Part shown: piece after piece, positions 2,837-14,465 of the stretch
Layout of the letters: the number at the start of each line of letters is the position of its first letter
How positions within the stretch are numbered: position 1 is the first letter of the stretch
Assembly (NCBI RefSeq): GCF_002240355.1
Contig: NZ_CP016353.1
Span: 1,228,501-1,292,500, forward strand
DNA from: Prauserella marina
Lineage (GTDB): Bacteria > Actinomycetota > Actinomycetes > Mycobacteriales > Pseudonocardiaceae
DNA length: 64,000 nt
Direction: 5' to 3'
The notes under the pieces: generated by a model
Told to the model about the DNA's origin: nothing
The model's input: only the letters and a program-made list of their open reading frames with translations
Databases searched by the model: none
Program-made: the position numbers and the translations under genes

Positions 2837-3264
2837 GTGTCCTCCCTGGCTCGCCGTGACCGCCGGGGTCGTCGGGACCACGGTGCCCGCAACCCTACCG
2901 CTGTCCGTGCGAACACGGGCAGGATGATCCGGAAATCCACAGTGGACATAAGTCGGCCGTCGGCGTTCCTGGAGGACAGGAAGGTCCTGCCGCGTCCTGG
3001 CGATTCTCACGCCGGGCCGTCCTGCCGGATCCGTCAACCGCGGGCGGCAACCAGCGTCCGGCTCCTGTGACGAGCCCAGCCGTCGCCGAACCCTTGCCTT
3101 CCGTGTGTCTCGGCACGTACCAGCGATACTCGCGGGAAGCTGACGTCTGCCATCGCAATGTCCGATCAGGACAGACGACTACCCCGCTGCCGACAGCGAG
3201 CTCCGGCCAGCGCTCATCTGCTATTCGGGCACATCGGCCGCTTCTCGCCCGTGTGTGGCAGGGG
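2837..3264. other. Intergenic region, no gene recognised
   Basis: About 430 bases between the phosphodiesterase gene and a small possible gene. Open frames here are short or have arginine/proline-rich sequence typical of antisense reading in GC-rich DNA. The only functional signal seen is the ribosome-binding site of the phosphodiesterase gene at its edge. Confidence 0.5.
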
Positions 3265-3501
3265 CTATTGCTCGTGGTCATCTCCGTCTTGCGCGCCCGG
3301 CCGGGCCCTCACCTGCGGCTCATCCGCGCTGGGAGATGTGCGACGCGTCCGGTCGGGGGGAACGCGGGGGCCTGTGTGCAGCAGCGGGTCCCATCCCCGC
3401 TGAGCGGGGATTCTGCTGATCGGGGCGCGCGCCAACTGCCAGCCGGAACCCAGTCGCCGGCGTATCTGCTTCGGCAACGCGTTCAACCTGCTCTTGTCCA
3501 T
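3265..3501 (-). CDS. Possible small hypothetical protein (78 aa)
   Basis: An ATG at 3501 is preceded by a perfect AGGAGG at 5-base spacing, the main reason to list it. The predicted 78-residue product starts MDKSRLNALPKQIRRRLGSG and is basic, with a hydrophilic proline- and arginine-rich tail. No family is recognised. It lies about 145 bases downstream of the terminator that closes the lanthipeptide operon, so it would need its own promoter. The N-terminal third looks protein-like; the rest resembles out-of-frame GC-rich sequence, so the real end or reality of the gene is doubtful. Confidence 0.3.
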   Translation of the reverse strand: MDKSRLNALPKQIRRRLGSGWQLARAPISRIPAQRGWDPLLHTGPRVPPDRTRRTSPSADEPQVRARPGAQDGDDHEQ

Positions 3502-3644
3502 CTGAACCTCCTGCTCGGCCGTGTCGCTACGGCCACCTGAACGGGGTTGACCAGTCACGACGGGACCAAACTCGGAACAGGTCTCGCCTTGCGGACCGCT
3601 ACCGTGCGGCCCGGACCGACAGCACACGGTAGCCATTTACGGCC

Positions 3645-3676
3645 GTGGTGGCCGGATACCGCTATCCGGCCACCAC
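3645..3676 (-). terminator. Perfect hairpin terminator of the lanKC-lanA operon
   Basis: A 14-bp perfect stem (GTGGTGGCCGGATA pairing with TATCCGGCCACCAC) with a 4-base loop, lying 47 bases downstream of the lanthipeptide precursor stop codon. There is no T-run, as is common for actinobacterial terminators. It separates the precursor from the next possible gene. Confidence 0.75.
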
Positions 3677-3723
3677 AGTCAACGCGGCACCCCAATGCAG
3701 GGCCGCGTCGCCTCAAGCCTCGA

Positions 3724-3825
3724 TCAGCACAGCAGGAGGCTCAGGTAGCTGATGATGGTGTGGTACGCCGGATCGGTCGTGGTCTCGTCGGCGTCCATGC
3801 CTTGCAGCTCAAGTACCGATTCCAT
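3724..3825 (-). CDS. lanA: Class III lanthipeptide precursor peptide, 33 aa, with C-terminal SxxSxxxC ring motif
   Basis: Read by hand immediately downstream (59 bases) of the LanKC synthetase gene, with an AAGGGA ribosome-binding site 7 bases before the ATG. The 33-residue peptide begins MESVLELQGMDADETTTDPA and ends YHTIISYLSLLLC. The VLELQ segment matches the conserved leader motif (LLDLQ-type) that class III synthetases recognise. Ser26, Ser29 and Cys33 form an exact S-x-x-S-x-x-x-C motif, the precursor of labionin or lanthionine rings; the SLLLC end resembles SapB. Thr15-17 and Thr23 are further dehydration candidates. Unusually, the ring cysteine is the very last residue, as in lipolanthines, where it is decarboxylated to avionin, but no LanD-type decarboxylase is seen nearby. 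The core/leader boundary is not determinable from sequence. Confidence 0.88.
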   Translation of the reverse strand: MESVLELQGMDADETTTDPAYHTIISYLSLLLC

Positions 3826-3884
3826 GGTGCGTTCCCTTTCTTTCCGTGTTTTCCTTCCACCCGCTCGAAAATGAGCCGGGCGGC

Positions 3885-6521
3885 TCAATGGGGCGATGAC
3901 GCGATCACGCTGTCGTCGCCAACCGTGGGGACAGGAGCGAGGAACGGGAGAACCCCGCTGTGGTCATCGAGTGCCGTGGATATCGAGAGCAGTACGCCCG
4001 CGCTGCCGGTGGCGACATCCATGGACAACCGGAGCAATTTGTTGCCGGGGAAAGCGATGCCGTCATCACCATCGCCGTCTGGCAAAGCAAACGGAATGGC
4101 GTGCCAGGCCAGCCTGGCAAGGTGCGATGCGATGGCGTCCTCGGCTGTGGGGTCATGCCCGTAGCGGCGAGCAGCGGCGAGTGTGGCCAGCAACCCACCA
4201 CGACCGGCCAGCAACCCGCACTGTAACGCGGCCTCGGCCCGACAGGCCCTCAACAGCAGCGGGAGCTGCCGCACGCTCGTCCCATCGTCGGACGTGTGCT
4301 TCGCCAGTTCCATCGCCGCCATGGCGATTCCCGCGCTACCGGTTCCAAGGAACGGCAACGTCCGCTTGACGCCGTCCCTGACCTGCATCGAGCCGTCACG
4401 GGCCGGAACGCATTCCGCGAGGTCGCGGCTTAGCGCGCGTTCGGCATGAACGAGCCATTCGCCGTCTCCAGTGGCCTCGAAGAGTCGGGTGAACAGCAAC
4501 GCGGGCCCCGACCAGCCTTCGACCAGCCCGGCCTTCGCTTTCCGGCCCGGCGGTGCCGCGCTCTCCAGCTCGGCCACCAGCCGTTCGCCGAGCTCGCCCG
4601 ACTCACCTCCACCGTCGCCGAGATACAGCAGAGTCAGTCCGATACCGGCGAGTCCGTTGGCCAGTCCGTGGTCGCGGGTTTTCGCTATGGACCGACGTGC
4701 GTCTGCCAGCAGGGCATTCGCCGTGTCGTGGTCGCCGAAACCATGGAGCACGTATGCGATTCCGGCTGCTCCATCCAGGAACCCGGGTGCGAGCGGGCGG
4801 TTTCTGTCGATCGCGTCCCGTAGCCAGCGGTCGTGTTCCGGGCTCCGGCCGAGCCCCTCGACGGCCAGTGCGTGCAGAACCCCTGCGGCGCCGTGGCCGA
4901 AACCGAGGCCGCCGAGCCGGAACTGCTCGATGTCACCTGGGAAGAGCCGGTCGGGACGTTCCGGCGTCGCGCTCGTCAGTATTGCCTGTGCGATCGACTT
5001 CCTCACAAGATTCCAATCCGGTTCGGGATCGTCGAGCACTGTGACCGGCGCGGTAGTCCGGTGGCCGATCGTGCCCCTGCCGACAGCGCGGCCCTCGCGA
5101 TCGCGGTCGTCCTTCTCCCTGGTGCCGCGGCGCAGCGTTGCCAGAATCGACTCGCCATAGCCATTGGGCAAGGGGAATCTGTCTTCGACGAACCTGACCC
5201 ATTCCGGCAGTTTCGCCGGCGCGAGTTCGAACAGCGCTGAGAGCGGAAGGAAGAGCCACAGGCGCAGTGCCGCGAGCGCGTAGTCGTCCACCTCGAAACC
5301 GGTCCGGTCAGCCGGGGCCCGGAATCCAGGCGCGCCCAGCGTCGGCCGGCGTGCCGGACCGGGAGGACCCGCGAGCTCGAAGTCGATCAAACTCACCGAG
5401 TCGTCGTCCGTGACGAGCACATTGGCCGGGTGAAGATCGTTGAAGACCAACCCTCGGAGGTGGATCTCGCTCACGGTTTCGCCGATTCTGTCGGCGATGC
5501 CGAGTGCTCGCCGCGTGTACGCGGCGACGTCGCTATCACTGGCGCGGTAGTTGGTCAGCGGATAGTTGGCGCCGAGCCATGAATGCAGTGGTACTCCCGG
5601 CCGGTGTTCCATGGCGAGGAAAAGGTGCTCCCATACGGGCGTCAGCTCATACACCGCCGGTACTCCCGGAACGTCGGTGAGGGAGGTCAGTGCCCGGTGT
5701 TCCCTGCGCAGCCTGGCGACCGCGTCAACTTTGTCGCCGTCGAGGCCGGCGTGCGGACGTGCCTCTTTCAGCACCACCTGGTTGCCTTCACGGGCGTGTT
5801 CAGCGAGGTAAACCCCGCCTCCGTTGGAAAAGTGCAGCGGCCGGTTGACGTGGTAGGCGAAGTCGCCGGTGCTCTTGGCGCTTCGTGCGGCGAGATGCGG
5901 GGCGAGAAACTCAGGGAGTTCGACCCAGTCTGGCAACGCGAATACCGGGCCACGGTGATCGGGAACCAGCGTGCCGTCTTCACGCGCGATCCCGAGCACC
6001 CGGGTGCCCCCGCTGTCGATCCAACGTTCGGTGAAACCGCCATACCGAACGTACAGCGGCCCATCGCCATACCTGAGGTCGCTCAGAATGTATGGCCCCG
6101 CTTGGCCGCCGATACGCTGGTCCAGTTCGGTCACCAACGTCTCGAACTCGCGGTCGTCGCGCGGGTAGATCGTGACCAGCTTCCCGCTCGCCTCGCGAGG
6201 GGCGTATTTCGAATTCCGTGCCAACAACACGGCCAGATCCGTCAGATGCTTGAAGGTGACGGCTCGTTCGACCAGGCACTCGTAAACTGTGGTGAGCACT
6301 TGCTCGGCGTTGTCCAGCGTCGCGGAAACGTGAATCTTCCAGCCCTGATAAGGCAACGACGCTCCGAGTGGATGCAGAACCCGCCATGTCCCGTGCTGTC
6401 GCTCCGCCCAGCCCTCTTCGGGAAGCGGGGTGAACCGGGCGAAACGTTCGGCTGCCGAGCCGCGCTGTTCGTCGAAGAACAGCGGGTCCGCCAAACAGAA
6501 CTCCTCGTACCGATGCTCCAC
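3885..6521 (-). CDS. lanKC: Class III lanthionine synthetase LanKC (lyase-kinase-cyclase)
   Basis: 878 residues from GTG 6521, which has AGAGGAGG at 7-base spacing; this is the usual LanKC length. It phosphorylates Ser/Thr of the precursor, eliminates the phosphate and adds Cys to the dehydro residues. The N-terminal lyase-like domain (about 1-200) carries GWKIHVSATLDNAEQVL, typical of LanKC. The kinase domain (about 215-480) has the lysine in VVLKEARPH (K252), NDLHPANVL (D362, N367) and IDFE (D380) in place of DFG. The C-terminal LanC-like cyclase (about 535-878) includes GLGFGHGAAG and a late LQCGLLAGRGGL. The full zinc-ligand set of LanC is not evident, as expected for class III. It is first in an operon with the precursor gene; no transporter or protease is adjacent. 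Confidence 0.93.
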   Translation of the reverse strand: MEHRYEEFCLADPLFFDEQRGSAAERFARFTPLPEEGWAERQHGTWRVLHPLGASLPYQGWKIHVSATLDNAEQVLTTVYECLVERAVTFKHLTDLAVLLARNSKYAPREASGKLVTIYPRDDREFETLVTELDQRIGGQAGPYILSDLRYGDGPLYVRYGGFTERWIDSGGTRVLGIAREDGTLVPDHRGPVFALPDWVELPEFLAPHLAARSAKSTGDFAYHVNRPLHFSNGGGVYLAEHAREGNQVVLKEARPHAGLDGDKVDAVARLRREHRALTSLTDVPGVPAVYELTPVWEHLFLAMEHRPGVPLHSWLGANYPLTNYRASDSDVAAYTRRALGIADRIGETVSEIHLRGLVFNDLHPANVLVTDDDSVSLIDFELAGPPGPARRPTLGAPGFRAPADRTGFEVDDYALAALRLWLFLPLSALFELAPAKLPEWVRFVEDRFPLPNGYGESILATLRRGTREKDDRDREGRAVGRGTIGHRTTAPVTVLDDPEPDWNLVRKSIAQAILTSATPERPDRLFPGDIEQFRLGGLGFGHGAAGVLHALAVEGLGRSPEHDRWLRDAIDRNRPLAPGFLDGAAGIAYVLHGFGDHDTANALLADARRSIAKTRDHGLANGLAGIGLTLLYLGDGGGESGELGERLVAELESAAPPGRKAKAGLVEGWSGPALLFTRLFEATGDGEWLVHAERALSRDLAECVPARDGSMQVRDGVKRTLPFLGTGSAGIAMAAMELAKHTSDDGTSVRQLPLLLRACRAEAALQCGLLAGRGGLLATLAAARRYGHDPTAEDAIASHLARLAWHAIPFALPDGDGDDGIAFPGNKLLRLSMDVATGSAGVLLSISTALDDHSGVLPFLAPVPTVGDDSVIASSPH

Positions 6522-7080
6522 CGCCACGCCTCCTCTGACTGTGCCGCACGGACTGTGCTCGATGTCGTTGGCTGTGGACACCGTGGTGACCAAGACCGTA
6601 AGCAGACATTGCCAAACCGGAGCCCGGCAAACGGGAACTTGTCCATGGCACCTCAACCAGTGACATTTCGCCCGCTGAGTGCGAGCCCGCTGGGTTCGCT
6701 GAGGCGAATGAGCGGTATTGGGATCGGTGGGCTCCCAGATGATGACGCTCAGCGACAGGAGATCGAACGAGTGACGAGATTGCCGACGGTGATCGGACAC
6801 CATTCAGGGGAGGCCGATCGCGATGAATCTGAAGCAGAGTCCACTACGGACTGAACTGTGTTCTTTCCCAGCGCGAGTTCGCCGGGCGTGAACCGGTTCC
6901 CGCTTGCGCGCATGCGAGCGTTGTCCGCGCGTACGCGCGAGTCGAACCGAGGAGTCCGGACCGTGCCGACGGGAATGCGGGTATCGCGGCCACGGCTCAC
7001 CGCCGATGTCCGGCGCAATCTGGGTTACGCCGGCGGCTCGGTTGTTTACCTGTGTGCACATTGGAGCTACGAGCGGAGGG
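6522..7080. other. Intergenic region upstream of lanKC
   Basis: About 560 bases between the lanKC start and the end of the flavoprotein gene, both on the minus strand. Several open frames exist on both strands, including a long upstream extension of the lanKC frame, but none has a convincing ribosome-binding site or recognisable sequence. The lanKC promoter should be here; no clear -35/-10 pair was identified. Confidence 0.5.
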
Positions 7081-7566
7081 TCACCGGTGTACGAGGCGTT
7101 CTGGCTCGCCTGGCCGCCAAATCGTGATGTCGAGACTGTCGTCGCCGGTCACCAAGCTTGAGGCTCCGATGAGATCCGCCGCGTACAGGTGCTCGAACTC
7201 CTGGCCACGAAGATCAAAACCGGTCTCCTCGAACATCGCTTCCGCGAACCGCGCATGTACCTCTTTGTCTTGCACGTCGCGCACGCGGCCCCACAGCTTC
7301 GCGTCACCTTCGTTCGGCTCGGTCTCGACCGTCGCCGTGTGCAAGCAGAAACGCGGGTCGCGACCGAGGTCGTGGAACTTGGTGGTGTTGGGCATACCGA
7401 CGAGCCACAGTTCATCCTCGAAGAAGCGAGGCTCGATGGGGCTGATGCGAGGAAATCCATCGGCTCGAAGGGTTGCCAACATACACAGGTTCTTTGTCGC
7501 GGCGTGGCGACGCGTGAAAACCTCGGCGATCACCGGAGCTGAGATGCTGAACTCTTTCCACGTGGT
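7081..7566 (-). CDS. Pyridoxamine 5'-phosphate oxidase-family (split-barrel) flavin-binding protein
   Basis: About 161 residues from ATG 7566; an ATG 14 codons upstream is possible, and neither has a strong ribosome-binding site. The fold markers are the opening helix with FTRRHAATKNLCMLATLRADGFPRISP, the typical first beta strands of the split barrel, then ELWLVGMPNTTKFHDLGRDPRFCLHT and a GDAKLWGRVRDV strand. Such proteins bind FMN, F420 or heme and carry out unknown redox or binding roles; this one cannot be assigned further. It lies 560 bases upstream of lanKC on the same strand, too far for a tight operon. A role as the missing lanthipeptide decarboxylase is not supported, because that enzyme belongs to a different fold (HFCD). 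Confidence 0.8.
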   Translation of the reverse strand, partial: TTWKEFSISAPVIAEVFTRRHAATKNLCMLATLRADGFPRISPIEPRFFEDELWLVGMPNTTKFHDLGRDPRFCLHTATVETEPNEGDAKLWGRVRDVQDKEVHARFAEAMFEETGFDLRGQEFEHLYAADLIGASSLVTGDDSLDITIWRPGEPERLVHR

Positions 7567-10655: not shown

Positions 10656-11273
10656 TCACAACCAGCCGCGTTCGCTTGCGGCCTTGGCCGCTTCGGTCCG
10701 GTTACGCGCGCCCAGTTTTGCCATCGCGCTGGAAAGATAGTTGCGCACGGTTCCTTCGGCGAGGTGCAGACGGGCCGCGATCTCGGCATTCGCCGCGCCG
10801 TCGGCGACCTCTCGCAGGAGTTGGCGTTCTCTGTCGGTCAGCGGGTCAGGCCGGCCCCAGGCCGCGACAGCCAGCTCGCTCGCGATTACTTGTTCCCCCG
10901 CGTGAACGCGCCGGAGCGCGACCATAAGTTCGCCGATGGGCGCGTCCTTGAGTACATAGCCGGCGACGCTGGCGTCGAGCGCGCGCCGAAGGTACCCGGC
11001 CCGGGCGAACGTCGTGACGATCAGGATGCGCACGGGGTGCTTCCTCCGAGCCAGTTCCACCGCGACATCAAGGCCGGAGCCGTGCGGCATCTCGATGTCG
11101 GTGACAAGCACATCCGGCTGGTGTTCCTCGACCGCGGCGAGTGTCTCCTCTCCCGTTGCGGTTGCCGCCACCACGGTGACGTCCGGTTGTAGATCCAGTA
11201 AGGACACGAACGCACTGCGTACCATCGCCTGATCTTCGGCAAGTACGACCCGGATCGGCGGATTCGTGCTCAC
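10656..11273 (-). CDS. NarL/FixJ-family response regulator of the ABC-transporter operon
   Basis: 206 residues from GTG 11273. The receiver domain holds the acidic pair E13/D14 in VVLAEDQ, phosphoacceptor Asp59 in VTDIEMP, and a lysine in YVLKDAP. A LuxR-type helix-turn-helix follows (about 145-200: LTDRERQLLREVADG, NAEIAARLHLAEGTVRNYLSSAMAKLG). The start GTG overlaps the stop of the upstream sensor kinase (GTGA overlap), so the pair is translationally coupled. Together with the kinase and ABC genes this is a self-contained sense-and-export unit, presumably regulating its own operon. The effector is unknown. Confidence 0.93.
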   Translation of the reverse strand: MSTNPPIRVVLAEDQAMVRSAFVSLLDLQPDVTVVAATATGEETLAAVEEHQPDVLVTDIEMPHGSGLDVAVELARRKHPVRILIVTTFARAGYLRRALDASVAGYVLKDAPIGELMVALRRVHAGEQVIASELAVAAWGRPDPLTDRERQLLREVADGAANAEIAARLHLAEGTVRNYLSSAMAKLGARNRTEAAKAASERGWL

Positions 11274-12349
11274 GTGGCCACCCTGAGCGGAACGGCGATG
11301 GTCACCGTGGTGCCCGCGTCGACGATTTTCTCCACCCTGCCACCCAGCGCGCTGATCCGTTCTCGCATGCCAGTCAGGCCGTTGCCTTCCGGCGCGGAGC
11401 CGTCGCCGACGCCGTCGTCGGCGATGACGAGACACAGGTCGTCTCCGACGACTCCGACATCGATATGACAGGTCGTTGCCCGCGCGTGCCTTGCCACGTT
11501 GGTGACCGCTTCTCTCAGCGCGAGCGCCAGTTCGTGTTCGGTGGAACCCACGATTGTCAGTGTCGCATCACGTCGAACTCTCGTCGTGATGCCAACCGTG
11601 GCCAGCGTTTCCTGCGCGGACTCCAGTTCGGCGTCGAGTCCCGCGTTTCGCCAGCCGGCAAGAGTCGCCCTGATCTCGGACAGCGCGGTACGGGCGGTGT
11701 CCTCGATGTCGGTGAGCTCGCTTCCGGCCCGGGAGTTGCTCCGGTCGAGTAGTTCATTGGCCAATTGAGCCCGCACGATGATTGCCGTGAGGGAGTGGCC
11801 GAGCAGGTCGTGGAGATCTCTCGCGATGCGTTCGCGTTCCGCGATCGTCGCCAGGTGCTCGACGCGGGCGTTCCGCATTCGCGTCTCGACCTCTGCTCGT
11901 TCGCGTTCTGACCAGCTTATCTGGAGGGAACCGATGACCCACAGGTAAATCAGCGAGGGGATGAGCCCGTAGAGCCGCCATGGCATCGGAACGAACGACA
12001 GCACTGAGGTCAGACTGAGTAAGGCCGAGAGTCCGATGAACCAGCGCAGAGCGCTGCGCCGAGACTCCGAGAATCCAGCGAATGCCGCCGCGTACACGAA
12101 CAAGATCGCCGCACCAGCGTTGAACGGTGTGGTGAGTGCGGCGAGGACCGTAGTCGGTACGGTGCCCGTCCAGCGGGCTCTTGCCGGCCAGCGCCACGAT
12201 GCCACGTACATGGGCAGGAACACAACGACGATGCCCGCGACCAGCGCCCAATCCGCCCCGCCGGAGTCGCGATCGAAGATCGGCCCCCACAGCAGATTGA
12301 CCAGATAGATGAGGTGGATCCATCTGGAGAGCCGGCCTGGAGGTTTCAT
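11270..12349 (-). CDS. DesK/NarX-type sensor histidine kinase
   Basis: 359 residues from ATG 12349, which overlaps the stop of the ABC permease gene (ATGA). About five hydrophobic segments occupy residues 10-140 with no obvious extracellular domain, suggesting a membrane-sensing kinase. The HisKA_3 dimerisation domain carries ERERIARDLHDLLGHSLTAI with phosphoacceptor His180. The ATPase part contains LREAVTNVARHARA (N box) and DDGVGDG plus GLTGMRERISALGG (G boxes). This is the intramembrane-type kinase commonly linked to ABC exporters for envelope-active compounds or natural products. The stimulus is unknown. Confidence 0.92.
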   Translation of the reverse strand: MKPPGRLSRWIHLIYLVNLLWGPIFDRDSGGADWALVAGIVVVFLPMYVASWRWPARARWTGTVPTTVLAALTTPFNAGAAILFVYAAAFAGFSESRRSALRWFIGLSALLSLTSVLSFVPMPWRLYGLIPSLIYLWVIGSLQISWSERERAEVETRMRNARVEHLATIAERERIARDLHDLLGHSLTAIIVRAQLANELLDRSNSRAGSELTDIEDTARTALSEIRATLAGWRNAGLDAELESAQETLATVGITTRVRRDATLTIVGSTEHELALALREAVTNVARHARATTCHIDVGVVGDDLCLVIADDGVGDGSAPEGNGLTGMRERISALGGRVEKIVDAGTTVTIAVPLRVAT

Positions 12350-13083
12350 GGTCGGGCACGACGATAGGACAAAGCTGCCAGCGGAGCTATGACGACGGTC
12401 GCAGCCAGCAGAGCCAGTAGGTGTCCGACCGCTGGAGCCGAGGTCAACTGAGCGAGCGCGAGTTGCGCGAGATGGTAGGTCGGCAGGAACTGGGCGATGT
12501 CGGCGAAGAAGTCCGGCAGAATCTCCAGCGGCATCCACAGGCCCGACAGGATCGCGGCAGGGAACAGGATCGCGTTGAGAATCGCGACGCAGGCGTTGGC
12601 GCTGGTCTGAAAGCCGACAGCGAGGCCGAGCAGCGCGAACGGGATGGCGCCGATGAGCAGCACCGCGTATACCCGTGCGAGGTCGGCGACCGAACCATTC
12701 AGGTTGCCGGTGATTGCCGCCGTCGCGGTCATCGCGATCAGCACGCCCACCGCGTACGGCATCGTGGCGATGACCTTAGCGGCCAGTGTGGCGCTGATCG
12801 GGACGGCGGACACTCGCTTCGCCCGCAGCCATCCCGAGCCGCGGTCGGCCGCGATACCGGTACCCGGATTGAGCAGCACGACCGTCAGCACACCGAATGT
12901 GCCGAACGTCGCGATCATGGCGGTACCTCGCTGGACCGTTGCCGAGGACTGATCGCCGTAGAGGGAAACGAACAAGGCGAAGAAGGCAACGGGCATGACG
13001 ATGGAGAAGAACAGCGCCGTGGGTTCGCGCACGATGCCGCGTAGTTCGTCGGCGATCTCCACGCGGAGTATGCGTGCGTTCAT
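12346..13083 (-). CDS. ABC-2 type transporter permease
   Basis: 245 residues with about six hydrophobic segments: TALFFSIVMPVAFFALFVSL, then segments near 55-72, 100-125, 135-160, 165-185 and 220-238. The ABC-2 signature is visible in FPAAILSGLWMPLEILPDFF. Start ATG 13083 overlaps the stop of the ATPase gene and its own stop overlaps the kinase start, both as ATGA. It pairs with the upstream ATPase to form an exporter of the drug/lipid or DrrAB/NatAB type. The substrate cannot be told from sequence. Confidence 0.92.
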   Translation of the reverse strand: MNARILRVEIADELRGIVREPTALFFSIVMPVAFFALFVSLYGDQSSATVQRGTAMIATFGTFGVLTVVLLNPGTGIAADRGSGWLRAKRVSAVPISATLAAKVIATMPYAVGVLIAMTATAAITGNLNGSVADLARVYAVLLIGAIPFALLGLAVGFQTSANACVAILNAILFPAAILSGLWMPLEILPDFFADIAQFLPTYHLAQLALAQLTSAPAVGHLLALLAATVVIAPLAALSYRRARP

Positions 13084-13991
13084 GCGGCGGCTCCCGTGGT
13101 CTGTCCGATCACGACTTCGACGGCTTCTTCGAGACTGGCACCTTCGACCCGCAGATCGGTGAGTGCGTCGTCGGCGGCGAGTAGTGCTCTCACCAGAGTC
13201 TCTGGCTCCCGGGTGGCCAATGTGACCCGTTGCCCGTCGAGTGTCGCCGACAACGCCCCCGGGAGGCCGCGCAGTACGGCAAGATCCAGCGCGGTGCGCG
13301 CACTGACGGTCCGGTCAGGGAGCTTGGCGATCAGTTCGGCAGGCGGGTCTTTCGCGACAGCCCTGCCGCGATCAAGAACGACGACTTCGTCCGCGACCTC
13401 CGCGGACTCCTCGACGAGATGGGTGGTCACCAGAATGGATGTGCCTCTAGCCCGGCGTTCGGCCAGTGTGCTCCATAGTCGTCGCCGACTCGGGACGTCG
13501 AGACCCCCCGTGGGTTCGTCAAGCACGAGCAAGGCTGGATCGGCGACCAACGCCATCGCGAGCTGAACCCGTTGACGTTGCCCGCCGGACAGCTTGGCCG
13601 CCCTGCGCTTGCCGAGTTCGGTGAGGCCCAGTTCGGCGAGAACGGGTCCGGCCGCGGCACGGCTACGGCCGGCTCGGACAGCGGCTCCCGTGACGAGTTC
13701 CAACACCGTCAGCGTGGTCGGAAATCCCAGGGATTGTTGCACGACGCCGATCTTTCGTCTCGTCGAGGCCTTGGCGGGATCACCACCGCAGAGCCGGACC
13801 CGTGTGTCGGCCTGCGGCCGGAGCAAGCCGATGACGAGATTCACCAACGTCGTCTTTCCCGCCCCGTTCGGGCCGAGGAGGGCGACACATTCTCCGGCCT
13901 GAACGTCGAGGTCGACGCCGGAAAGTGCCCGCTGCTCCCGGTAGCTGTGCCGAGCGTCGCGGACTTCCAATACCGTATTCACCTGATCCAT
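13080..13991 (-). CDS. ABC transporter ATP-binding protein (DrrA/CcmA type)
   Basis: 303 residues from ATG 13991. Walker A GPNGAGKTT near residue 40, Q-loop in VVQQSLGFP, signature LSGGQRQR, Walker B LLVLDEPTGGLD and switch VTTHL are all intact. A C-terminal extension of about 80 residues (TVSARTALDLAVLRGLPGA onward) is typical of DrrA-type exporters. It is the first gene of a four-gene coupled operon: ATPase, permease, histidine kinase, response regulator. In-frame sequence upstream of 13991 is open but not protein-like. Confidence 0.94.
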   Translation of the reverse strand: MDQVNTVLEVRDARHSYREQRALSGVDLDVQAGECVALLGPNGAGKTTLVNLVIGLLRPQADTRVRLCGGDPAKASTRRKIGVVQQSLGFPTTLTVLELVTGAAVRAGRSRAAAGPVLAELGLTELGKRRAAKLSGGQRQRVQLAMALVADPALLVLDEPTGGLDVPSRRRLWSTLAERRARGTSILVTTHLVEESAEVADEVVVLDRGRAVAKDPPAELIAKLPDRTVSARTALDLAVLRGLPGALSATLDGQRVTLATREPETLVRALLAADDALTDLRVEGASLEEAVEVVIGQTTGAAA

Positions 13992-14465
13992 GCTGGCTTG
14001 ACGGAGCCTCTGGATGTAGTGCGGCGATGTCACCGATGCGTGATGACAAATGTCAGCTGCCGCGGGCATCTCGTTCGCGCCATGTGAAAGTTGTGGCGCT
14101 GGTACCGGTGTCGGGAAGCGCGTCCGGTACCAGCGCCGGGACCCGCGACATGGGCGGGCCCTGGCAACCCGGCACAGTGGACTGTCGGCGTCGCCCGTCT
14201 TGGCGGGGCGCGACGAGCGTTGCGCCGGGCGGGTTGTAAGGCCGGACCGGTCGGCCGTCACTGTGTAGTTGTCAATGAGCGCGTCGCTGTTCGTCGCGAG
14301 GTCACGGCTGGTGGCTGGGGTGAATCACGTGAGTGCGGGAAATGCGTGATCTGTGACGGGTGGTGGTTCGCCACGTGGTTCACAGGGTGGCAAAGGAGAA
14401 GCGCCGTTGGCTAGATGTGTTCTAGATGATGTGGCTGAGTGGGTTCTGGTGTCGAGGGGATAATG
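13992..14465. other. Upstream region of the ABC/two-component operon, no gene recognised
   Basis: About 470 bases. Only short, unconvincing open frames are present. The operon's promoter should lie here; a TTGACA hexamer occurs on the minus strand near 14275, without a clear partner. Confidence 0.4.

What the first reader, a model, noticed from the sequence alone, without database searches (positions are those of the whole stretch)
3724..3825. Unannotatable-size class III lanthipeptide precursor with a C-terminal cysteine
Seen: a 33-codon frame 59 bases after lanKC, with RBS, LanKC-type leader motif VLELQ, an exact S-x-x-S-x-x-x-C motif (Ser26, Ser29, Cys33) and SLLLC end as in SapB. Established: class III LanKC enzymes make labionin or lanthionine from this motif. 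Odd: the cysteine is the final residue, as in lipolanthines where a decarboxylase makes avionin, yet no HFCD decarboxylase, fatty-acid or PKS genes are near. The product may be a very short, single-ring peptide with a free carboxylate, or need an enzyme from elsewhere in the genome.
Basis: partly seen in the sequence, partly recalled or inferred. Interest (0 to 1): 0.85.

Follow-up and report, generated by a model that had tools for sequence, protein, structure and literature searches.

The report
Single-ring SapB-like peptide gene, exporterless
An actinomycete carries a real 33-residue gene for a one-ring version of a known kind of ring-containing bacterial peptide (the kind that helps such bacteria raise aerial threads), next to the enzyme that should build the ring but without the usual export pumps; it looks like an unusual reduced form of a known system, not an unknown one.

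Summary
Window 3724-3825 (-) encodes MESVLELQGMDADETTTDPAYHTIISYLSLLLC, 59 bases after an intact class III lanthionine synthetase (LanKC1). It passes the curated cut-offs of NF033212 (SapB/AmfS) and PF19402 (RamS) but lacks their C-terminal part: one ring motif instead of two. The avionin/decarboxylase reading is not supported: the genome's only two PF02441 genes lie about 3 Mb away, and peptides with the same SYLSLLLC core continue past the Cys in two other genomes. The nearest LanKC relatives (at most 61% identical) have two-ring precursors in the same place, and an exporter pair in 15 of 18 loci fetched far enough; the window has no such exporter. The same genome holds a second locus, syntenic with a canonical one, that kept exporters, lost its precursor and shows decay. 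Single-ring SLLLC-type precursors recur in several enzyme lineages, some with and some without exporters; SYLSLLLC recurs in three genomes of another family on a different LanKC branch. Most likely: a minimal class III lanthipeptide with one labionin (or lanthionine plus Dha) ring and a free C-terminal carboxylate. New variant of a known kind; chemistry, export and function untested.

The parts
3724..3825 (-). lanA: 33-aa class III lanthipeptide precursor MESVLELQGMDADETTTDPAYHTIISYLSLLLC plus stop
   Evidence: NF033212 and PF19402 over cut-off; 0 of 60 shuffles
3802..3816 (-). leader recognition motif VLELQ (residues 4-8)
   Evidence: translation; L5, L7, Q8 invariant in 12 LanAs chosen by me
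3727..3750 (-). ring-forming octapeptide SYLSLLLC (Ser26, Ser29, Cys33), Cys is the last residue
   Evidence: translation; same octapeptide in G919, G820, G1083
3826..3840 (-). ribosome-binding-like stretch GAAAGGGAACGCACC before the lanA ATG
   Evidence: sequence; resembles relatives
3885..6527 (-). lanKC1: class III lanthionine synthetase, 880 aa from a likely GTG start (frame open to an ATG at 6803)
   Evidence: NF038151 968.7 bits, cut-off 575; RamC_N, Pkinase, LANC_like; checked lyase and kinase residues kept
3645..3676. perfect 14-bp inverted repeat 47 bases after the lanA stop, perhaps the end of the transcript (no T run; not listed by the terminator scan)
   Evidence: 71-nt fold z -3.58

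Best explanation
A stand-alone lanKC-lanA pair that makes a one-ring SapB/AmfS-family class III lanthipeptide. LanKC1 binds the VLELQ leader helix, phosphorylates and eliminates Ser26 and Ser29 to Dha, and the thiol of Cys33 adds to Dha29; the enolate then closes on Dha26 (labionin) or is protonated (lanthionine plus Dha). The C-terminal carboxylate stays free. The leader is cut by unlinked housekeeping peptidases. The precursor is a reduced descendant of a two-ring SapB/erythreapeptin-like precursor; which ring was lost cannot be told. Shown here: gene, homology, intact enzyme residues, no decarboxylase or SapB-type exporter nearby, nested position among two-ring relatives. Inferred: ring chemistry, leader removal, export route, and a surfactant/morphogen-like role from the hydrophobic core.
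For: LanA passes two curated models but matches only their first 31-33 positions. LanKC1 is full length with the residues equivalent to ThurKC K65, H67, K94, K108, K117, D152, R163 and kinase K/D/N/DFE kept (roles from passages of PMC10604976). LanKC1 nests among two-ring loci (13-row set, SH-aLRT 96; LanAs). 15 of 18 family loci fetched with about 4 kb downstream (L057-L074) carry SapB-type exporters; the window has none at E 1e-8 in 15 kb left of it nor in its first 30 kb, apart from two weak overlapping ABC-domain hits about 20 kb from lanKC1. Single-Cys LanAs recur: 28 of 154 candidates. SYLSLLLC followed directly by a stop also in G919, and with a tail in G820 and G1083.
Against: No expression, mass or structure data. 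The locus is seen in one genome only: its three held genus-mates have no LanKC. LanKC1 sits on a long branch (0.69-0.76), so relaxed constraint is possible. The cyclase positions aligned with ThurKC F770/D771 are L/A here, but they vary among the 59 relatives too. No promoter-like site was found in 3200-7200 (sigma-70 pattern only). I read of no structure with a free-acid labionin at the very C-terminus.
Confidence: 0.72

Rival explanations
1. Decaying remnant: the locus is a degenerating SapB-type cluster that has already lost its exporters and half of its precursor, and makes nothing useful.
For: Exporters absent; long LanKC1 branch; three genus-mates have no LanKC; the second LanKC locus of the same genome looks decaying.
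Against: LanKC1 is an intact 880-codon frame with the checked lyase and kinase residues, unlike LanKC2 (K94 to R); leader, RBS and ring motif are all kept; single-ring SLLLC precursors recur in other lineages, and the octapeptide recurs exactly in another family.
Confidence: 0.15
2. Lipolanthine/avionin-like product: the terminal Cys is oxidatively decarboxylated by an unlinked HFCD enzyme.
For: The Cys is the last residue, as in microvionin (PMC9415263, passages). A cyclopropane-fatty-acid-synthase-type gene lies about 6 kb away.
Against: Only two PF02441 genes in a 99.96% complete genome, about 3 Mb off: one is coaBC-like by sequence, the other a small flavoprotein-like stretch 8 kb from it; no PKS or fatty-acid synthase among the 19 flanking proteins or the neighbours; homologues with the same core carry residues after the Cys. 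A LanKC with a PF02441 gene next door does occur in the family (G069), so the search can see such a case.
Confidence: 0.05
3. Split cluster: the window LanA is exported (and perhaps modified) by the LanKC2-exporter locus 5.3 Mb away along the contig.
For: That locus has lanKC2 and both exporter genes but no lanA; only one LanA is recognisable in the genome; the AU test does not reject LanKC1 and LanKC2 as sisters (p 0.31). G018 likewise has an exporterless pair (L113) and a canonical locus with exporters (L221).
Against: The first exporter has an in-frame stop and a lost Walker A lysine; LanKC2 carries K94R and is 56% identical to its syntenic counterpart while most flanking proteins are 70-93%. 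G016 and G020 have an exporterless pair as their only LanKC locus at E 1e-60; exporter genes elsewhere in those genomes were not searched.
Confidence: 0.08

Closest known systems
SapB/AmfS-family class III lanthipeptides (RamS/RamC; NF033212, PF19402)
   Same: LanKC enzyme, LxLQ leader, S-x-x-S-x-x-x-C ring motif with SLLLC (SapB sequence recalled), lanA beside lanKC
   Different: one ring instead of two; Cys terminal; no RamA/RamB-type exporter pair at the locus
Erythreapeptin-like two-ring precursors of Pseudonocardiaceae (name recalled; sequences)
   Same: nearest LanKC relatives (up to 61%), same gene order lanKC-lanA, similar RBS and leader
   Different: core SNLSLLASC..STISLLTCH with two rings, usually followed by two ABC exporters
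Noursin (PMC10206099, abstract and passages read)
   Same: class III peptide with one Cys and one labionin, LELQ leader
   Different: extra His-Dhb cross-link, core ends in Val after the Cys, cluster has a peptidase and a transporter
Lipolanthines such as microvionin (PMC9415263 passages; lipid tail recalled)
   Same: terminal Cys, S-x-x-S-x-x-x-C type core (recalled)
   Different: decarboxylase, avionin and a lipid tail; no such genes found here
26-28-aa single-Cys class III precursors (GSTVSNNC type) seen in this survey
   Same: single ring motif, mostly terminal Cys
   Different: SxxSxxC spacing, one to four copies, separate LanKC clade

Membership tests
Class III lanthipeptide (LanKC-made) | lyase-kinase-cyclase LanKC next to the precursor | tested here: met
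   NF038151 968.7 bits against cut-off 575; RamC_N, Pkinase, LANC_like
Class III lanthipeptide (LanKC-made) | LxLQ leader and S-x-x-S-x-x-x-C core | tested here: met
Class III lanthipeptide (LanKC-made) | labionin or lanthionine in the product | not testable with these tools
   needs mass spectrometry
SapB/AmfS family | precursor over NF033212 / PF19402 cut-off | tested here: met
   27.6 vs 25; 27.2 vs 24.3
SapB/AmfS family | two ring motifs | tested here: not met
   one Cys only; no second-ring remnant in the 60 bases after the stop (421 of 500 shuffles score as well)
SapB/AmfS family | exporter pair at the locus | tested here: not met
   contrast 15 of 18 family loci L057-L074
Lipolanthine | HFCD decarboxylase | tested here: not met
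   two PF02441 genes only, about 3 Mb away
Lipolanthine | PKS/FAS and acyl-joining genes nearby | tested here: not met
   no PKS or fatty-acid synthase among the flanking proteins scanned; not every frame was scanned; one CMAS-type gene about 6 kb away
Lipolanthine | terminal Cys | tested here: met
Noursin-like (LanKC-Hbt) | His-to-Dhb cross-link and that LanKC subgroup | not tested
   no comparison with NorKC was made

The most novel reading that the evidence does not exclude
There is a kind of stand-alone 'mini' class III lanthipeptide with a single SxxSLLLC ring at or near the C-terminus, often without an exporter, reached independently in several actinomycete lineages (down to the identical octapeptide SYLSLLLC on separate LanKC branches). 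In this genome it has outlived the ancestral two-ring SapB-type cluster, and it may act inside the cell or at its own membrane rather than as a secreted morphogen.
Probability: 0.2. Interest if true: 0.65.

Novelty: new variant of a known kind. Interest (0 to 1): 0.45.

Why it matters
If LanKC1 makes a single terminal labionin on an octapeptide motif, this is among the smallest natural substrates for a class III synthetase and a clean test case for what decides labionin against lanthionine. The loss of one ring, in several lineages together with the exporters, questions whether two rings and secretion are needed for the SapB-type role.

Tried and rejected
Decarboxylase route: PF02441 search of the own genome and of ten relatives; rejected. 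Second-ring remnant downstream of the stop: none. Which ring was lost: DNA of the window ring compared with ring 1 and ring 2 of 67 two-ring genes gave means of 65% and 63%; ring 1 better in 43, equal in 8, worse in 16; undecided. The idea that the stop replaced a Cys codon of ring 1, suggested by the alignment, therefore stays a guess. Kinship of the SYLSLLLC loci: AU test rejects one clade of LanKC1 with the G820, G919 (both copies) and G1083 enzymes (p 6e-6; quick tree, G1083 row 471 aa). LanKC1 and LanKC2 as sisters: neither shown nor rejected (p 0.31); LanKC1's place shifts between trees. A strictly exporterless reading of the one-ring form: not borne out, since the G387, G197 and G200 one-ring loci do have exporters. 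Empty-site comparison in genus-mates failed: the neighbouring gene used as anchor is in 1 of 4 genomes, the own one. Promoter scan of 3200-7200 found nothing, and its terminator list (3 found, 2.4 expected) does not include the hairpin at 3645-3676. First literature listing on decarboxylases was mostly unrelated. A pattern was mistyped and listed no LanA; repeated correctly. A class III review was not held. No fold was predicted: the enzyme's family is plain from sequence.

Full report
1. The observation. Window 3724-3825 on the minus strand reads MESVLELQGMDADETTTDPAYHTIISYLSLLLC and a stop. It starts 59 bases after the end of a lanKC frame at 3885. The frame passes the curated cut-offs of NF033212 (27.6 bits against 25) and PF19402 RamS (27.2 against 24.3), in each case covering only the first 31-33 of 42-44 model positions. 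Searched over the whole genome it is over the NF033212 cut-off (E 2.9e-5; the only other of the four matches that is listed has 16.3 bits), and it is the best match to a model of nine two-ring relatives (E 0.0019; the next has E 1.8). The simple pattern occurs once in the window and in 0 of 60 shuffles. So the gene is real by sequence, and 'unannotatable' is too strong.

2. The enzyme. LanKC1 (880 aa from a likely GTG) scores 968.7 bits with NF038151 against a cut-off of 575. Residues aligned with ThurKC K65, H67, K94, K108, K117, D152, R163 and the kinase K, D, N and DFE residues are kept (roles from passages of PMC10604976; the mapping was by motif and spacing, not from a ThurKC sequence; R191 was not mapped). 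The cyclase positions that align with ThurKC F770 and D771 are Leu and Ala; they vary in the 59 relatives aligned too, so I draw nothing from that.

3. Relatives. The window is G000:C1:1228501-1292500 of a 6.99 Mb genome. None of the three other held genomes of its genus has a LanKC. In the family, 217 of 390 genomes have a match at E 1e-60 or better; the best LanKC identity is 61%. The family is taken as Pseudonocardiaceae because a named Amycolatopsis arida record (L001) gives the same LanKC identity and LanA as a same-family genome (G389, L032). All 30 of the closest loci looked at (L001, L026-L054), and 16 of 18 (L057-L074; no LanA seen in L064 and L074), have a lanA just after lanKC with the same kind of leader but two rings, typically SNLSLLASC..STISLLTCH. 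15 of those 18 (L057-L074, about 4 kb downstream) have SapB-type ABC exporters there. The window has none at E 1e-8 in the 15 kb to its left or in its first 30 kb, apart from two weak, overlapping ABC-domain matches about 20 kb from lanKC1. An ABC-2 transporter with a two-component pair lies at 10656-14261; a role is possible but not indicated.

4. How unusual is it? I examined 187 LanKC places, the window not counted (five duplicate loci dropped beforehand; 39 of the 187 are downstream pieces only; one locus with two LanKCs counts once; a few places are from outside the family). By my leader-and-ring pattern 154 have a LanA candidate and 33 do not; some of the 33 are failures of the pattern or script, e.g. 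L110, whose LanA was seen. Of 154 first candidates, 28 have a single Cys after residue 12 and 38 end in Cys. None of the 154 has all three of one Cys, SxxSxxxC, and Cys last. Close neighbours exist: G012 ..SGLSLLLCD, G387 ..SGLSLLLC with one more Cys outside the ring motif, G296 ..SRVSLLLCD, four loci ..STLSLLICW. A wider search (24 of 394 class genomes, own included, with a match at E 0.001) found G919 with MSYILDLQSMETPVAESADQAYSVSYLSLLLC, which meets all three, and G820 with SYLSLLLC followed by FTGAVEADA. A search of 341 genomes of that other family (22 with a match at E 0.01, those two included) added G1083..AISYLSLLLCFTGVHSDS.

5. Exporters and one-ring loci. No SapB-type exporter was found around the one-ring loci of G012, G296, G192 and G189 (about 7-11 kb each side, L208, L210-L212), in the 19.9 kb around the G820 and G919 loci, or within 1.5 kb at G1083. 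Against a strict link, the one-ring loci of G387, G197 and G200 do have the exporter pair (L209, L216, L214), and some two-ring loci lack it (L059/L113, L110, L118, L219).

6. Evolution. LanKC1 nests among two-ring loci in the trees, though its exact neighbour changes: L114 (SH-aLRT 94), a six-row set with the own LanKC2 (95), the exporterless G012/G016/G020 group (81/77), or outside ten two-ring-type rows (90). The LanKCs of the SYLSLLLC loci in the other family lie in a different part of the tree, and one clade with LanKC1 is rejected (AU p 6e-6). So the short one-ring form arose more than once, or the precursor moved between enzymes. Which ring was lost is undecided.

7. A second locus in the same genome. 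LanKC2 lies at C1:6512074-6514566, minus strand. Its surroundings match, gene by gene, the canonical two-ring locus of G328: most flanking proteins 70-93% identical (one small one 54%), LanKC2 56%, exporters about 48-53%. The exporter frame begins about 30 bases after lanKC2 and no lanA lies between. The first exporter has an in-frame stop and a changed Walker A, the second is open. LanKC2 has R at the K94 position. I read this as the ancestral cluster in decay, while the window pair is a separate, still intact unit.

8. Mechanism. From established class III chemistry (passages of PMC10604976 and PMC7268733): leader-dependent phosphorylation and elimination of Ser26 and Ser29, addition of the Cys33 thiol to Dha29, then either ring closure on Dha26 (labionin) or protonation (lanthionine and Dha). 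PMC7268733 states that Sx2Sx3C can give lanthionine or labionin. Nothing here decides between them. Protease genes are absent from most characterised class III clusters (PMC8960859 passages); four PF01433 (M1) genes are present in this genome, none tested for this role. The last 14 residues are strongly hydrophobic (mean Kyte-Doolittle 1.46), which suits a surface-active, SapB-like role; PMC13380574 (abstract and passages) reports that hydrophobic residues are critical for a related morphogen and mentions an intracellular role as a possibility. Export is the weak point: an unlinked transporter, the second locus' exporter, or no export at all remain open.

9. Novelty. A single-Cys class III peptide is known (noursin, PMC10206099), and two-ring SapB/AmfS peptides are a large group. 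I found no description of a one-ring SapB-type peptide with a terminal Cys and no exporter in the listings and passages seen (searches; open-licence library only; no paper read whole, no supplementary files), which is weak evidence. I file it as a new variant of a known kind.

Noticed in passing
window 3265-3501 (-): 78-aa frame with a strong RBS-like stretch (AGGAGGTTCAG-ATG) after the hairpin that follows lanA; no Pfam or NCBIfam match.
   Followed up: partly
window 10656-14261 (-): LuxR-type response regulator, histidine kinase, ABC-2 permease and ABC ATPase in a row, about 4 kb upstream of lanKC1; could serve export or immunity, unproven.
   Followed up: partly
L105, L106, L107, L108, L111, L136, L139, L141, L146, L147, L155, L159, L179: 26-28-aa class III precursors with one ring motif, mostly GSTVSNNC-like with terminal Cys, in one to four copies after lanKC; below the 30-aa floor used by the 2020 lanthipeptide mining paper PMC7268733 (passage).
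   Followed up: partly
L056 (G000:C1:6503000-6522000): SapB-type locus in apparent decay: lanKC2 with exporters but without lanA; first exporter frame interrupted.
   Followed up: yes
L165 (G069:C1:5768710-5772022): LanKC with a PF02441 flavoprotein gene next to it: candidate lipolanthine-type cluster; its precursor did not fit my pattern.
   Followed up: no
L166, L171: At least four different class III precursor frames after one lanKC.
   Followed up: no
L064, L074, L121, L128-L132, L134, L135: LanKC loci without a LanA by my pattern; either unusual precursors or losses.
   Followed up: no
L242 / L207 (G335:C53): LanKC beside homologues of the second locus' neighbours, with no LanA by my pattern and no exporter in the 2.3 kb downstream: perhaps another decaying copy.
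   Followed up: partly
L109 (G069:C1, locus 6983-7111): Orphan one-ring LanA-like frame MDFVLALQELDVEQEQAADVIGAGSTLSLLVCDDGSILGERE with no LanKC in the 14 kb fetched.
   Followed up: no
L292 (G919:C1:3131000-3150900): Two lanKC-lanA pairs in tandem, one one-ring (SYLSLLLC), one two-ring, no SapB-type exporter.
   Followed up: partly
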